From assembly GCF_011074885.1 (NCBI RefSeq), contig NC_054689.1, forward strand, positions 2,108,001 to 2,172,000: a stretch of DNA of 64,000 nucleotides. Reading direction: 5' to 3'. The notes beneath the pieces are model-generated. The model was not told the DNA's origin. It saw only the letters and a list, made by a program, of their open reading frames with translations, and made no database searches. Made by a program: the position numbers and the translations under genes. Positions 14,190 to 51,771 of this stretch are shown in pieces; the stretch's first letter is position 1, and each line of letters begins with the position of its first letter. The stretch is from Brettanomyces bruxellensis. Lineage: Eukaryota > Ascomycota > Pichiomycetes > Pichiales > Pichiaceae.

Positions 14190-15134
14190 ATGGGGAGACC
14201 TAGAGTAAGTGATATAACAAAAAAAGCAACACTGATATGCTTTTTATGGATAGTTTTACTAACAAATTTTCATGTAATTTAGTTAATACTTCTTGTCCGT
14301 CATGGAGAATCTGAAGGAAACAAGGATAAAACAGTGAATCAGTATATACCAAATCACAAGGTTCCATTGACAAACCATGGACATGAACAAGCACTTGAAG
14401 CAGGAAAGCTTCTAAAGTCTATTTTAAAAGAAGATGACTCCATTTGCTTTTACACGTCACCATATCTGAGGGCCCGCCAGACTACAAACGATATAATTGA
14501 AGGTATCAAGGATACAGGTGTGAAATATGTAATTGAAGAAGAACCTAGAATGAGAGAACAGGATTTTGGAAATTTCCAGAGCACAAAAGAGGAGATGCAG
14601 AGAATATGGGTTGAGCGTGCAAAGTACGGCCATTTCTTTTATAGAATTCCTTACGGAGAGAGTGCAGCAGATGTATATGATAGATGCGCTTCCTTTGATG
14701 CATCTCTTTTCAGACATTTCGCGCGGGACACGTTCCCGTCGATTTTGGTACTTGTTACGCATGGAATCTGGGCGAGGGTTTTCTTGATGAAATGGTTTCG
14801 ATGGACCGTGGAGTATTTTGAGGATTTACAAAACGTCCCTCATTGCACGTGGATAGTGATGGAAAAAGATCCTAAAACACAGAAATATCATCTGAACACA
14901 CATTTACAAACGTGGTCTGAGCTTGAGGATCAGCAAAGGGCGAAGAAGTTGAAAGAAGACACTTCAGATGAGTTGAGGCTTACTACAAACGGGCAATTAG
15001 ATGATAACGAAATGAATACGGTTGCAGTTGCAGCAGCTAAAGCCAAGGATGAGCAAGTGAAAAGGTCACTAGAAACCATGAGGAAGTATGAAGTGCTGTT
15101 CAAAAATAAGAACACCAAAGAAGCTGGCATTTGA
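14190..15134 (+). CDS. DET1: Histidine-phosphatase superfamily protein, Det1-like, with a five-codon first exon
   Basis: Spliced product of 288 residues: exon 1 14190-14204 (MGRPR) and exon 2 14283-15134. The join restores MGRPRLILLVRHGESEGNK, the start of the phosphoglycerate-mutase-like fold with the catalytic RHG (R11-H12-G13); a second catalytic His is in VTHGIW near residue 164, and Glu in REQDFGNF fits the proton donor region. S. cerevisiae Det1 (YDR051C) is an acid phosphatase linked to sterol traffic between membranes; it has the same ARPRLI-type entry and the YGHFF..P.GESAADVYDR block seen here. The C-terminal tail is charged and helical. Without the intron the first catalytic His would have no upstream ATG, so splicing is well supported. 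Confidence 0.85.
14205..14282 (+). other. Spliceosomal intron in DET1 (78 nt)
   Basis: Donor GTAAGT at 14205, branch site TACTAAC at 14257-14263, acceptor AG at 14281-14282. It lies after only 15 coding bases, a typical 5'-biased yeast intron. Confidence 0.9.
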
Positions 15135-45614: not shown

Positions 45615-46580
45615 TCATGGGCCTGTTAACTTTCTTGTGATTTCATCCGTGAATGCAAAATCGGAAGCTTGCGCATAAGAGTAAAAGTTTAAATCTGTTC
45701 TAAATTTTGCAAATAGGTGTGGCTTTTTGTGTATTATCTGGTCTCGGTTTAATGCCCAAAAAGTAAGTAAACCAATCTTCATCCGAAATGCAAAAGAGAC
45801 CATATGCCGCCAATCTTCCAAAGTGAATATGATGCCATCATCGTTTTGGCCAATCATTGGGCATAATCCCATCATTTTCCACACATCTTTTTTTGTTTTT
45901 CCAAATATTTTTTGTAAAATAGCATTTGATTCATGTATTATCTTAAAATTGTGCTCTTCCCATGTTCTATAATGACCTAAATCAGTATAAAAATCCATGA
46001 TCATTAAATTGATATATTTTATACGAATTTTTGCATCATTGAAAAGCTTTAAAACCTTTGCTGCATCATCACCTATTCCTATTTCATATTCTACGGGTAA
46101 AGTTATTGATATCCAAAAATTAGGACCATACTTTATAGATATCATCTTTATTATTTCCAATAATTTGCGCAACCTGTATTGATCAGTTAGTGCTTTCCCC
46201 TCAATGTCCAAATCAAGTCCTTTAAACCCGGCAGCAGCAATTAGTGTATCTAATTCTTTGAATTCCTCAACCACATTCAATTTAACTGAAGGATAGTGTC
46301 CATCAGCTCCGCCAATGGAAAGAATGACATTTCCTGGAAATTGTCTTATCTCTGGAATCCATTGTTCAATTTCATCATATGTTTCGTTGGTTAAAAAGGC
46401 TAGCATAACATAGTCAAAACACGTTTTTTCTTTGACATCTCTCAAGGATGAAATTTTGTACTTTTTATCATTTTTTAGGCACCACGAATAAATATATGGA
46501 GAGCAAATAGTCATTTTGCTTGTAGAGTAACGTTTTGTAAAACAGCAAAAATATGTGGTAAAAAAGTATGTAAACGTCAT
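45615..46580 (-). CDS. GH18 chitinase-like protein, bacterial-type subfamily
   Basis: The 321-residue product folds as a GH18 barrel by motif: VILSIGG (85-91), the catalytic GLDLDIEG with D123, D125 and E127, NLMIMDFYTD (191-200), LCPMIGQNDDGIIFTLEDW (~239-257) and TFWALNRD (273-280). The last blocks resemble bacterial (actinobacterial/ChiD-like) chitinases rather than yeast Cts1. The catalytic Glu is intact. The N-terminus (MTFTYFFTTYFCCFTKRYSTSK) is hydrophobic but not a convincing signal; a second ATG at 46514 gives MTICSPYIYSW, where the barrel begins. No chitin-binding domain or Ser/Thr linker is present, unlike Cts1. The gene looks more AT-rich than its neighbours. Hydrolysis of chitin or related glycans is inferred; transfer from bacteria is a hypothesis. 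Confidence 0.85.
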   Translation of the reverse strand: MTFTYFFTTYFCCFTKRYSTSKMTICSPYIYSWCLKNDKKYKISSLRDVKEKTCFDYVMLAFLTNETYDEIEQWIPEIRQFPGNVILSIGGADGHYPSVKLNVVEEFKELDTLIAAAGFKGLDLDIEGKALTDQYRLRKLLEIIKMISIKYGPNFWISITLPVEYEIGIGDDAAKVLKLFNDAKIRIKYINLMIMDFYTDLGHYRTWEEHNFKIIHESNAILQKIFGKTKKDVWKMMGLCPMIGQNDDGIIFTLEDWRHMVSFAFRMKIGLLTFWALNRDQIIHKKPHLFAKFRTDLNFYSYAQASDFAFTDEITRKLTGP

Positions 46581-48043: not shown

Positions 48044-48990
48044 ATGTCATTTAGAAGATCAAGATCACAATCTCCAACGAAGGGATATTCTTTTCCTGAC
48101 CGAACACCGCTCTCGCTGAAGGATTCAAATGTGTATGGCTCAGGTAGTTCATCACGGAATTCCTCTCCTTTAAAAGCATCTTTTCCACGATTATCACAGT
48201 CTTCAAGGAGTCAAGAATCAAGATCATCATTTTATCGCAAGGAGAATAGCGTGTCTCCGAAAAAGGCTTTCCCAAAGAGACCTTCCTCGTTTGCACTTGA
48301 TAACAACGTTTCCCTTTCACCTACAAAAAGCTAAAGTCGAATACAACACCGGCTCTAAAACATCAGCCAAACTCAACTCTAAAATCGTTCAAAATATTTG
48401 AAGATCCAGATGATTATAACAAGAAATTACGCTCTAAATTTGAGGAAACATTAAAAATTTGTGATTTAGCACCTGAAACGAAGGAGAACATCTTTCCATT
48501 CGTGGGCAGGCAACAAGAAGATCAACACATACCGTCTGAGAACGTTTTTGATGATAAGATACCACAAAAACTTTTGAAACGACAAAGACGACCATTGCAT
48601 GATCTCAGTATAATGGATTACCCTGGGTATGCTCAAGTACTCCAGTCTCGAAAAAGTTCCGGCGTCTTAAGTCCTAAATCGCAGCTCATGAACTCGTGGA
48701 TATTGAAGTTCGGTCCTTCAAGAAGACATTCAACAAGGACTCCAAAGATTCGAATGCCATCTTTTGTTACACCTCCAAAGAAAAGCGGTCTCCGGTTCAG
48801 ATATATTTCGTCTCTTGATCAAAGAAAACATCGTTTTCGGGTGACAGATACGGGGCGTCCATCGAATGTAAATGTGATCGATTACCCTCAGAGGGGAATG
48901 GATTCAAGAATTTTGACGTATGATGCTGATTTCGCAGAAGCCAAAAGAAGACTTAAATTTCCTATTTATGATGACAATATCAGAAACTAG
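48044..48990 (+). CDS. ACM1: Probable Acm1 homologue (APC/C-Cdh1 inhibitor) with a one-base frameshift
   Basis: Two adjacent frames form one protein of about 315 residues: 48044-48334 (96 codons, stop 48332-48334) and an open frame continuing to 48990. An A5 run at 48325-48329 sits where the frames would join; one extra base there would make them continuous. The first part is Ser-rich with many SP(x)K Cdk-type sites, an RxxL (RTPL, residues 20-23) and a KEN box (66-68). The second part has FKIFED (48388-48405), fitting the ABBA motif, then an RxxL D-box RRPLHDLSI (from 48586), and MPSFVTPPKKSG plus RRLKFPIYDDN. These match, in my recollection, LKDLS, LPSFITPP and the RKLSFHVYEDE end of S. cerevisiae Acm1. 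Acm1 blocks Cdh1 as a pseudosubstrate. Whether the shift is real, an assembly error or recoding is undecided. Confidence 0.7.
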
Positions 48991-49506: not shown

Positions 49507-51771
49507 CTAATGCCTAGAACTCTTTCTCCCCTTTAGTGTCTTCACCCTTCTCAAGAAGCCACTTGACTCTAGTATACTCTTCTTCCTTCCCAACTGAGTC
49601 TTCTCTTTTTCCTTGGCGAATGCTTTCTTTTGGGCTGCCGTTGAAGCAGGAGCACCATCCAGAAACGTACTAGATCCTAGTCCAAGTGTTGTATCACCAT
49701 GCACTGGTGTAGACTTTGTGTTAACATCAAATCTAGTTGTTGTAGGATTATTATTCAATTCATTCAGACGGATAGTTGACTGCGTTGCCTTTTTGACGAT
49801 GAGACCATTTCCATATGGTGTTTTGCCTGTATAGTAATCTGGGTTTCCAGAACTGCGCGAACGATTTTGTTGGGAAGAGGAGCCCTGATGCGAAATCTTT
49901 GTTGTGTACAATGGTTCATCATCCCCAACACCAAACATCAGATCATATTGATTTTCGGTAGAATTCATTGGAGCCATACCCTTGATAGAATTGTTTGGTC
50001 CATCAGGTGGGAATGCCAGTACTGGTGCCCTCGACTTATCTCTATTCCTGTGTGGTGTGCATGCATCAAATGGTCCATCATGATGAAATTTAGCACCTCC
50101 ATAAAAACCAGTCACATCTAACTTGTCGATAGTATCCAAGTTCTTTGGCTTGGCCATCACAAATTTTTTGTGTGGATGATGGTGATGGTGGTGGTGATGG
50201 TGATGATGATGATGATGTGGTTCAGGACTCTCAGAAACGGCATGGCGACTCTTTCCATCCAGAGATGCTTGTCCAACACTTCTGGATCTGATTCTTCCAT
50301 CTTCCATAATTTTCGTTTCTGTAGTAGCTGTGATGTCTTTTCTACGTGGCTGGGTGTTGGAATTCTCGCGTGACCTGTTATTCGAATGCAATCCCTCACG
50401 TCCTGCATTCCTCCTACTTCTAGAAGAAACTCTCACTGTTTTAGCACGGCGAGGCAATGTAGCAGCAGGAGGCATCTTAGATCTCTTACTGGAATCCTCT
50501 CTTCCAATTGGACGTTTTTCGTCGGTTGGATATTCATCCTTGGAATATTTCTTCCCAACTGCTTCTTCGTAAGATGGCGGTAAGTCGCTGCTATCGTTTA
50601 ATGCATTAGGGTCATAATTCCTTGGTAAGCTCATATCTGTTCTTGAAGGAGTGTTGTGTCTCATACTTCCTTTAGTTGATGCCTTTCTAGAATTTTCACC
50701 GCTGGACATGTCAGAAAATGGATTTGTCGATCTTCTTCTTCTTAATCTGAAAGGAAGCAAAATATATAGCAGACGTTAGTATCCAATGAAAAAGAAAGAA
50801 GAAAAAACGCAGAGTAAGAAACAGATATGCTATCAAAAATGTTAAAAGCCACCGGTGTAAATCCTAGCACAGCCAAAACAATTTAATTCTATGCCATGAC
50901 AGAAATCGCCAGGAATTCAATGGACGAAGAGCACAGAAAGGCCAAACAAAATTGCCCAGTAAAAAGAACCAAAAAAGAGAAAAAAAAATCCCTGCATCGA
51001 GAATAGAAACTTGCTAAAATAAAAAAAGGGGGGCCCAATCTCTATCAAAGTGGCTATTTTTAGTAAAAAAAAAAGTGTGCTGCGCGTGGGGATGAAACCA
51101 AGAAATTCCATAAAAAATAAAAAACGCGGAAATGGCAACAGAACATTTTTGACCTCAAAAAATGCCCTAGCCCAAACACATCTACCTATCACACATAGTT
51201 ATTTGAAACAGCTATGAATCAATCATGGGTGAATAATGTATTTTCACGCTTCAAAATGAAGAGCAAGCTTTTGAATATAAATAAAGTCCTTCCCCACATG
51301 TTTTGGAGTATCGTGCTTGTAAATAGTAATAGAAACCCATAATAAAAAAAAGTATTCAAAAGGAAAATCAGTTGGTTTTGACCATAGTTGTGAAGAAACT
51401 TGATAGCATTCTGTGAAAGAATTTTGAAAAGAAAATGTCGATTATAATATCATCCGGCTCGAAAACTTAATATATACTTACGTCATAGGATCAGAACCCC
51501 TTGAATCAAGTGAAGGCTTCTTAGGAACTCTTTCAGATGTAAAGTCAATAAGCTCATCGCCCTCACTAAATGAATTACTGTCGCTCACAGATTCCTCGTC
51601 TATCCGTTGATCCATCCAGTCCTTGTATTTTGGATCTTTTGATATAGTGGCCTCCTCTTGAAGAAGGGCAGACCGGAATGGATTATTGGAAGACAGACGC
51701 TTGGCGGAACCAGTAGATGTAGCAGACAGGTTTGAGTGCCTAAACATTGGCTGCTTGGGTGCTTGTTGCAT
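49507..51771 (-). CDS. PAL1: Pal1 family endocytic/morphology protein, split by a long intron
   Basis: Spliced product of 509 residues from exon 1 (51482-51771) and exon 2 (49507-50746); S. cerevisiae Pal1 has 499. Exon 1 starts at ATG 51771 (MQQAPKQPMFRHSN) and ends in a phase-2 codon that joins to give SDPMT-LRRRRSTNPFSD. The conserved Pal1 block is KNLDTIDKLDVTGFYGG then FHHDGPFDACTPHRNRD, preceded by a run of 14 His. NPF motifs (NNPFRS, TNPFSD) suggest EH-domain (Ede1-type) binding. The C-terminus is basic, with serine sites. Pal1 arrives early at endocytic patches and affects cell shape in fission yeast. A start within exon 2 alone would lack the family N-terminus. Confidence 0.88.
50175..50218 (-). 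repeat. Poly-histidine tract in PAL1
   Basis: Fourteen consecutive His codons (CAC/CAT mixed). The mixed codons suggest selection or age rather than a recent single-codon slippage event. Confidence 0.9.
50747..51481 (-). other. 735-nt intron in PAL1
   Basis: Donor GTAAGT at 51481, branch site TACTAAC (50781-50775) 28 nt before the acceptor, polypyrimidine GCTTCCTTTCAG ending at 50747. The exons join in frame. The interior holds no ORF or RNA family that I can support. Confidence 0.88.

What the first reader, a model, noticed from the sequence alone, without database searches (positions are those of the whole stretch)
48044..48990. Probable Acm1 homologue with KEN, ABBA and D-box motifs far from Saccharomyces
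The two frames together hold an RxxL near the N-terminus, a KEN box (nt ~48239-48247), an ABBA-like FKIFED (48388-48405), and an RxxL D-box followed by LHDLS (from 48586), then MPSFVTPP and a KFPIYDDN end. The order of final D-box, SFxTPP block and acidic end parallels S. cerevisiae Acm1 as I recall it, and the KEN also precedes that D-box. Acm1 evolves fast and is hard to find by sequence search; a homologue in a CUG-Leu, Pichiaceae-like yeast would widen the range of Cdh1 pseudosubstrate inhibition. The ABBA motif lies before the KEN in Acm1 but after it here, suggesting motif shuffling.
Basis: partly seen in the sequence, partly recalled or inferred. Interest (0 to 1): 0.8.

Follow-up and report, generated by a model that had tools for sequence, protein, structure and literature searches.

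The report
Acm1-type Cdh1 inhibitor, distant yeast
The gene looks like a distant yeast's version of Acm1, a small protein that blocks the cell-division enzyme APC/C by imitating its substrates, and it keeps the same motif order as in baker's yeast rather than a shuffled one.

Summary
The finding holds, with one correction. Window 48044-48990 (+) encodes a 315-residue protein in two frames that meet at an A5 run. A 97%-identical database protein (P0001) is one intact frame, so the break is not general. Profiles of Saccharomycetaceae Acm1 recognise the family: profile-profile probability 97.8, E 8e-13; best of 980 ORFs, E 3e-7. With the right KEN the order is N-terminal D-box, ABBA, KEN, central D-box, extension (+10), [FY][VI]TPP[KR], C-terminal LxF. 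That is the Acm1 order in 13 of 13 full-length proteins, so 'motif shuffling' is rejected. The genome encodes a Cdh1, 180 of 304 positions identical to the S. cerevisiae domain. CUG reads Leu. Best reading: an Acm1 orthologue acting as a Cdh1 pseudosubstrate inhibitor, a new member of a known kind. Function is inferred; no binding was tested. Bolder, unproven lead: the TPP block and LxF end may dock mitotic cyclin-Cdk1-Cks1.

The parts
48044..48990 (+). Acm1-like gene, joined product 315 aa, in two frames in this assembly
   Evidence: intact 315-aa relative P0001 at 97% identity
48044..48334 (+). Frame A, residues 1-95 and the stop TAA at 48332-48334
48304..48990 (+). Frame B, residues 96-315 (its open stretch overlaps frame A by 28 bases)
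48325..48329 (+). A5 run where the two frames meet
   Evidence: P0001 continuous here
48071..48082 (+). SPTK, CDK-type site just before the N-terminal D-box
   Evidence: S. cerevisiae P0004 has SPSK at residue 3
48101..48130 (+). N-terminal D-box RTPLSLKDSN (R..L..K..N)
   Evidence: Pattern in 13 of 13 full-length family proteins
48239..48247 (+).
   Evidence: QEN in P0002 and P0003
48388..48405 (+). ABBA motif FKIFED
48481..48489 (+).
   Evidence: KEN between ABBA and D-box in 13 of 13
48586..48606 (+). Central D-box RRPLHDL
   Evidence: R..L.DL in 13 of 13
48616..48636 (+). D-box extension DYPGYAQ, ten residues after the D-box Arg
   Evidence: Offset +10 in 13 of 13
48757..48780 (+). PSFVTPPK block with a full CDK consensus TPPK
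   Evidence: 13 of 13
48946..48975 (+). C-terminal RRLKF-PIYDD: RxLxF/LxF followed by an ABBA-like FPIYDD
   Evidence: L.F.[IV].[EDN][DEN] in 13 of 13

Best explanation
The gene is the Acm1 orthologue of a CUG-Leu, Pichiales-type yeast. Its product would be a mostly disordered (assumed, not computed) pseudosubstrate inhibitor of APC/C-Cdh1. The ABBA motif, KEN147 and the central D-box would occupy the three degron sites of the Cdh1 WD40 domain. The segment after the D-box, which lacks the Asn/Ser of substrate D-boxes and carries the extension [DE][FYH]xG[YF]x[QE], would keep the bound protein from being ubiquitinated efficiently. CDK would phosphorylate the S/TPx[KR] sites and stabilise it; the N-terminal D-box would mark it for Cdc20. 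Shown here: gene, motifs, conserved order and spacing, profile homology, and a Cdh1 with matching D-box residues. Inferred from S. cerevisiae: binding, inhibition, phospho-control and degradation.
For: Profile-profile match to Acm1 over 124 columns (query 89-257): probability 97.8, E 8.4e-13, KEN147 on Acm1's KEN. HMM of 10 Acm1 proteins: window frame B is the best of 980 six-frame ORFs of the window and nine loci, E 3.1e-7 (tied only by the same ORF in L001; its best single stretch 0.001), next ORF 0.37; the reverse HMM gives all 10 Acm1 proteins E 1e-6 or better in a set of 15 proteins, P0011 only 0.12. Shuffles reaching the real score: 0 of 3000 for each of three proteins. With the degrons masked: 0, 0, 1 and 0 of 3000 for window, P0001, P0002, P0003. 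Seven blocks in the same order in 13 of 13. The genome has three Cdc20-family proteins over the cut-off. L002 is identical to the S. cerevisiae Cdh1 domain at 180 of 304 positions and keeps D256 and E537, which hold the Acm1 D-box Arg (PMC12401543, passages).
Against: Single-sequence searches of this genome with Lachancea and S. cerevisiae Acm1 found nothing (0 candidates, no positive control). No Pfam family at E 1. A MAFFT alignment of nine proteins set Acm1's KEN opposite SEN165-167 of the window family, not KEN147, so KEN-to-KEN descent rests on hhalign and on order. Lys333 of S. cerevisiae Cdh1, which meets the ABBA P5 Glu (PMC5717348, passage), aligns with Ala in L002. No shared neighbours with S. 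cerevisiae ACM1 (its neighbours PLC1 and DIM1 are recalled). KEN-to-D-box spacing is longer (31-35 versus 21-26). In this assembly the frame is broken. The degron-masked signal is weak and rests mostly on the PSFVTPP block. No binding test.
Confidence: 0.85

Rival explanations
1. [quoted passage not shown]
For: Short degron motifs arise often; the bare ABBA..KEN..RxxL order appears in 41 of 200,000 shuffles of the window protein. The masked-degron signal is weak, 7.7-13.4 bits.
Against: Order, the +10 extension, the TPP block and the C-terminal block are shared in 13 of 13. The central D-box lacks Asn/Ser at P9 and P10 in all nine proteins aligned, window family and Acm1 alike.
Confidence: 0.08
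2. The window copy is a real broken allele or pseudogene, so this strain lacks an intact protein or relies on another allele. (This bears on the copy, not on what the family is.)
For: Frame break at 48325-48334 and 11 residues different from intact P0001.
Against: Both halves stay open with all core motifs; the break lies in a homopolymer run, a common assembly error (recalled). DNA and P0003 searches show one locus in this assembly.
Confidence: 0.25
3. One reading: an Acm1 with KEN and ABBA shuffled relative to Saccharomyces.
For: A KEN does lie before ABBA in the window and P0001.
Against: That KEN is QEN in P0002 and P0003; KEN147 is conserved and in the Acm1 order.
Confidence: 0.03

Closest known systems
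Acm1 (YPL267W) of Saccharomyces and other Saccharomycetaceae
   Same: Seven blocks in the same order, D-box extension at +10, TPPR/K CDK site, C-terminal LxF block
   Different: 315 versus 209-233 aa for the ten full-length Acm1 proteins, longer N-terminal and KEN-to-D-box segments, 23-29% identity to six Acm1 proteins, no shared neighbours seen
Mes1 of Schizosaccharomyces pombe (named in PMC6534075, passages)
   Same: Works alike: a pseudosubstrate inhibitor of Cdh1-type coactivators and a substrate for the Cdc20 type
   Different: No sequence comparison was run here
Emi1 of metazoa (PMC5717348, passages)
   Same: Cdh1 inhibitor with a D-box
   Different: Acm1 uses ABBA, KEN and D-box on Cdh1; Emi1's other domains (recalled) gave no Pfam match here
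Cdc6 and Swe1 of S. cerevisiae (PMC6620034, passages)
   Same: LxF motif plus a threonine CDK site, as in the C-terminal third here
   Different: Not claimed as homologues; the three residues before LxF fit the published consensus at only one position here

Membership tests
Acm1 | Profile homology to Acm1 in both directions | tested here: met
   shuffles 0 of 3000 for each of three proteins
Acm1 | ABBA, KEN, central D-box in this order | tested here: met
   The strict ABBA pattern F.[ILV][FY].[DE] is met by the window protein and 9 of 13; the other 4 (FTFHEE, FSFYEE, FHFHEE, FVMFEE) are in P0010, P0012, P0013, P0014
Acm1 | N-terminal Cdc20-type D-box | tested here: met
   R..L..K..N in 13 of 13; said to be highly conserved in Acm1 orthologues in PMC4114781 (passage)
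Acm1 | D-box extension after the central D-box | tested here: met
   My pattern at +10 in 13 of 13; the exact residues of Qin 2019 were not read, the extension is only named in PMC12401543 (passage)
Acm1 | CDK sites S/TPx[KR] | tested here: met
   Five in the joined window protein
Acm1 | Cognate Cdh1 with matching pockets | tested here: inconclusive
   D256, E537 and the GGNDN stretch kept; K333 is Ala (role of GGNDN recalled)
Acm1 | Binds and inhibits Cdh1, not Cdc20 | not testable with these tools
   Needs protein work
Acm1 | Shared gene neighbourhood (PLC1, DIM1; recalled). Not a defining feature at this distance | tested here: not met
   No PI-PLC or rRNA-dimethylase domain in 29 ORFs scanned besides the gene itself: all 28 of 150 aa or more and one of 97 aa

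The most novel reading that the evidence does not exclude
Acm1 is bifunctional: besides plugging Cdh1, its conserved blocks [FY][VI]TPP[KR] (a threonine CDK site) and the C-terminal LxF form a Cdc6-like docking pair for Cks1 and mitotic cyclin. Acm1 would then recruit, or be shielded by, M-CDK while it inhibits Cdh1, an arrangement kept from Saccharomyces to this yeast. The C-terminal FxIYxD could also be a second ABBA-like site.
Probability: 0.2. Interest if true: 0.65.

Novelty: new member of a known kind. Interest (0 to 1): 0.43.

Why it matters
Acm1 is hard to find by plain sequence search: direct queries missed this copy. A member in a Pichiales-type yeast would push the origin of this Cdh1 inhibitor back to before the split from Saccharomycetaceae and shows which parts stay fixed: KEN147, R..L.DL, the +10 extension, the TPP block and LxF. 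The comparison makes the function of the last two directly testable in laboratory S. cerevisiae.

Tried and rejected
Intron between the frames: rejected, since P0001 keeps every residue on both sides. A likely intron does occur in another window gene (14205-14282).

Programmed frameshift: not needed, as an intact frame exists in P0001.

Motif shuffling: rejected. Synteny with S. cerevisiae ACM1: not seen.

Direct search of the genome with Lachancea and S. cerevisiae Acm1: nothing. P0003 finds this locus and only this one. No useful PDB match to frame B (one hit, E 1.1).

A last protein search with the joint alignment of nine returned five proteins, four of them already in it and one new, P0014; five members of the alignment were not among its hits, so that search is not exhaustive.

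A simple scan of 603 bases upstream for MCB, SCB and Forkhead patterns gave one CACGAAA and one ACGCG: no conclusion.

Structure prediction and fold search were not run: I judged a lone, probably disordered chain uninformative, and the prediction tool takes one protein, not a complex with Cdh1.

Papers: five primary Acm1 papers (PMC6873173, PMC3690534, PMC3101997, PMC3259782, PMC2494983) are not held. No held paper joins Acm1, Cdh1 and Pichia, or Acm1, anaphase-promoting complex and Saccharomycetaceae. That does not show that such a homologue is unpublished elsewhere.

P0011 was dropped from the profiles and from the count of 13 because its second half diverges; it lacks the central D-box, extension, TPP and C-terminal blocks.

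Full report
What is there. At 48044-48990 (+) two overlapping frames encode one protein of 315 residues when read together. They meet at an A5 run, 48325-48329. A protein search with the joined letters returned three proteins among 737 candidates: P0001, 315 residues in one frame, 97% identical, a cluster of 48 member sequences; P0002, 311 residues, 59%; and P0003, 269 residues, 43% (45% to P0001). The window differs from P0001 at 11 of 315 residues and no gap is needed. The frame break is therefore an assembly error or one allele, not a property of the gene. I could not tell which.

Which motifs are conserved. In the three-way alignment the N-terminal RTPL..KDSNV.G, SSPLK, ABBA (F.I.ED), KEN147, R..L.DL, PSFVTPPK and the end L.F.IY.D are invariant. 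The conserved KEN is the one it did not list, at 48481-48489, between ABBA and D-box. The order is thus that of S. cerevisiae Acm1 (ABBA 61, KEN 98, D-box 119 in P0004).

Is it Acm1? The PDB copy confirmed residues 59-128 (4bh6_I), and the database returned the real proteins: 10 hits among 128 candidates, 8 of them named, from six Saccharomyces species, Torulaspora globosa and Lachancea fermentati. A profile of P0001-P0003 matches a profile of 9 of these with probability 97.8 and E 8.4e-13 over 124 columns, KEN on KEN and D-box on D-box; the N-terminal and C-terminal blocks lie outside that stretch. A MAFFT alignment of nine proteins instead set Acm1's KEN opposite SEN165-167, so the loop around KEN is not firmly aligned. 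An HMM of 10 Acm1 proteins (the 9 plus P0014) ranks window frame B first among 980 six-frame ORFs of the window and nine loci, E 3.1e-7, tied only by the same ORF read from L001; its best single stretch has E 0.001, and the next ORF E 0.37. In a set of 15 proteins the reverse HMM finds all 10 at E 1e-6 or better, and P0011, with its divergent tail, only at 0.12. None of 3000 shuffles of the window protein, P0002 or P0003 reaches the real score. With the D-box, ABBA and KEN patterns masked the score drops to 7.7-13.4 bits, still above all shuffles in three of four proteins; 1 of 3000 for P0002 exceeds it. This residual signal sits mostly in the PSFVTPP block.

Spacing. In 13 of 13 full-length proteins (P0001-P0010, P0012-P0014; P0011 left out) the D-box extension [DE][FYH]xG[YF]x[QE] starts exactly 10 residues after the D-box Arg. 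ABBA to KEN is 31 in the window family and 35-38 in the others. KEN to D-box is 31-35 against 21-26. A passage of PMC12401543 says that residues after the Acm1 D-box, the D-box extension, can inhibit processivity through APC10, citing Qin 2019, which is not held. The conserved +10 segment fits this, but I did not see which residues that paper defines.

Partners. The genome has three Cdc20-family WD40 proteins over the family cut-off: L002, best matched by Fizzy-related/Cdh1 chains, and L003 and L004, which I take for Cdc20 and Ama1 by rank and appearance only; they were not compared further. L002 is identical to the S. cerevisiae Cdh1 domain at 180 of 304 positions and keeps D256 and E537, which bind the D-box Arg of Acm1, and the GGNDN stretch, which I recall as part of the KEN site. 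It has Ala in place of K333, the residue that contacts the fifth ABBA residue in S. cerevisiae. So the ABBA contact may differ in detail.

Which yeast. Four of four CTG codons in the window's Mcm2 fall on Leu of the best PDB match, 28vy_2, which I recall as S. cerevisiae Mcm2. Rpb2 (974 residues read) scores 1859 bits against 5x4z_B, which I recall as Komagataella, and 1719 against 1i3q_B (YOR151c, S. cerevisiae). A CUG-Leu yeast on the Pichiales side is supported. Brettanomyces is only a guess from genome size (13.2 Mb for B. bruxellensis in PMC7052964, passages); the window's GC of 37.7% is somewhat below the 39.9% given there.

How it most likely works. As in S. cerevisiae: three degron mimics fill Cdh1's sites (PMC5717348, first part of section 5, and passages), CDK phosphorylation stabilises the protein (PMC2876151, passage), and APC-Cdc20 recognises the N-terminal D-box (PMC4114781, passages). 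For this yeast all three steps are inferred from conserved sequence.

A further lead. Beyond the extension, two conserved blocks have no role given in the passages I saw. One is [FY][VI]TPP[KR], a full CDK site on threonine. The other is L-x-F within the last 8-12 residues in 13 of 13, with R or K two residues before the Leu in 12 of 13; P0003 lacks it. LxF binds Clb2, and in Cdc6 and Swe1 it works with a threonine CDK site that binds Cks1 (PMC6620034, passages). That paper does not mention Acm1 in its main text (0 occurrences), and Acm1's flanks match only one of its three extra positions, so Acm1 falls outside its consensus. A shared role in M-CDK docking is a hypothesis. A 14-3-3 site at the TPP threonine, which I recall only vaguely from the Bmh1 work, is an alternative.

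Verdict. The shuffling claim does not. It is a new member of a known kind, with a clean correction and one testable lead.

Noticed in passing
window 48946-48975; C-termini of P0001-P0010, P0012-P0014: The Acm1 family ends in LxFx[IV]x[EDN][DEN]: LxF resembles the mitotic-cyclin docking motif and the tail resembles an ABBA motif (FPIYDD here, FHVYED in S. cerevisiae P0004).
   Followed up: partly
window 14190-15134 (+): A histidine-phosphatase-family gene seems to start at ATG 14190 with a 15-base first exon and an intron 14205-14282 with GTAAGT, ACTAAC and TTTAG signals, so the ATG-based ORF from 14550 is too short.
   Followed up: partly
window, about 50170-50215 (-): The Pal1-family protein (49507-50709, -) carries a run of about 14 histidines.
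   Followed up: no
window 45615-46580 (-): A short glycosyl-hydrolase-18 protein matches only part of the Pfam profile (49-189 of 317), perhaps a divergent or inactive chitinase-like protein.
   Followed up: no
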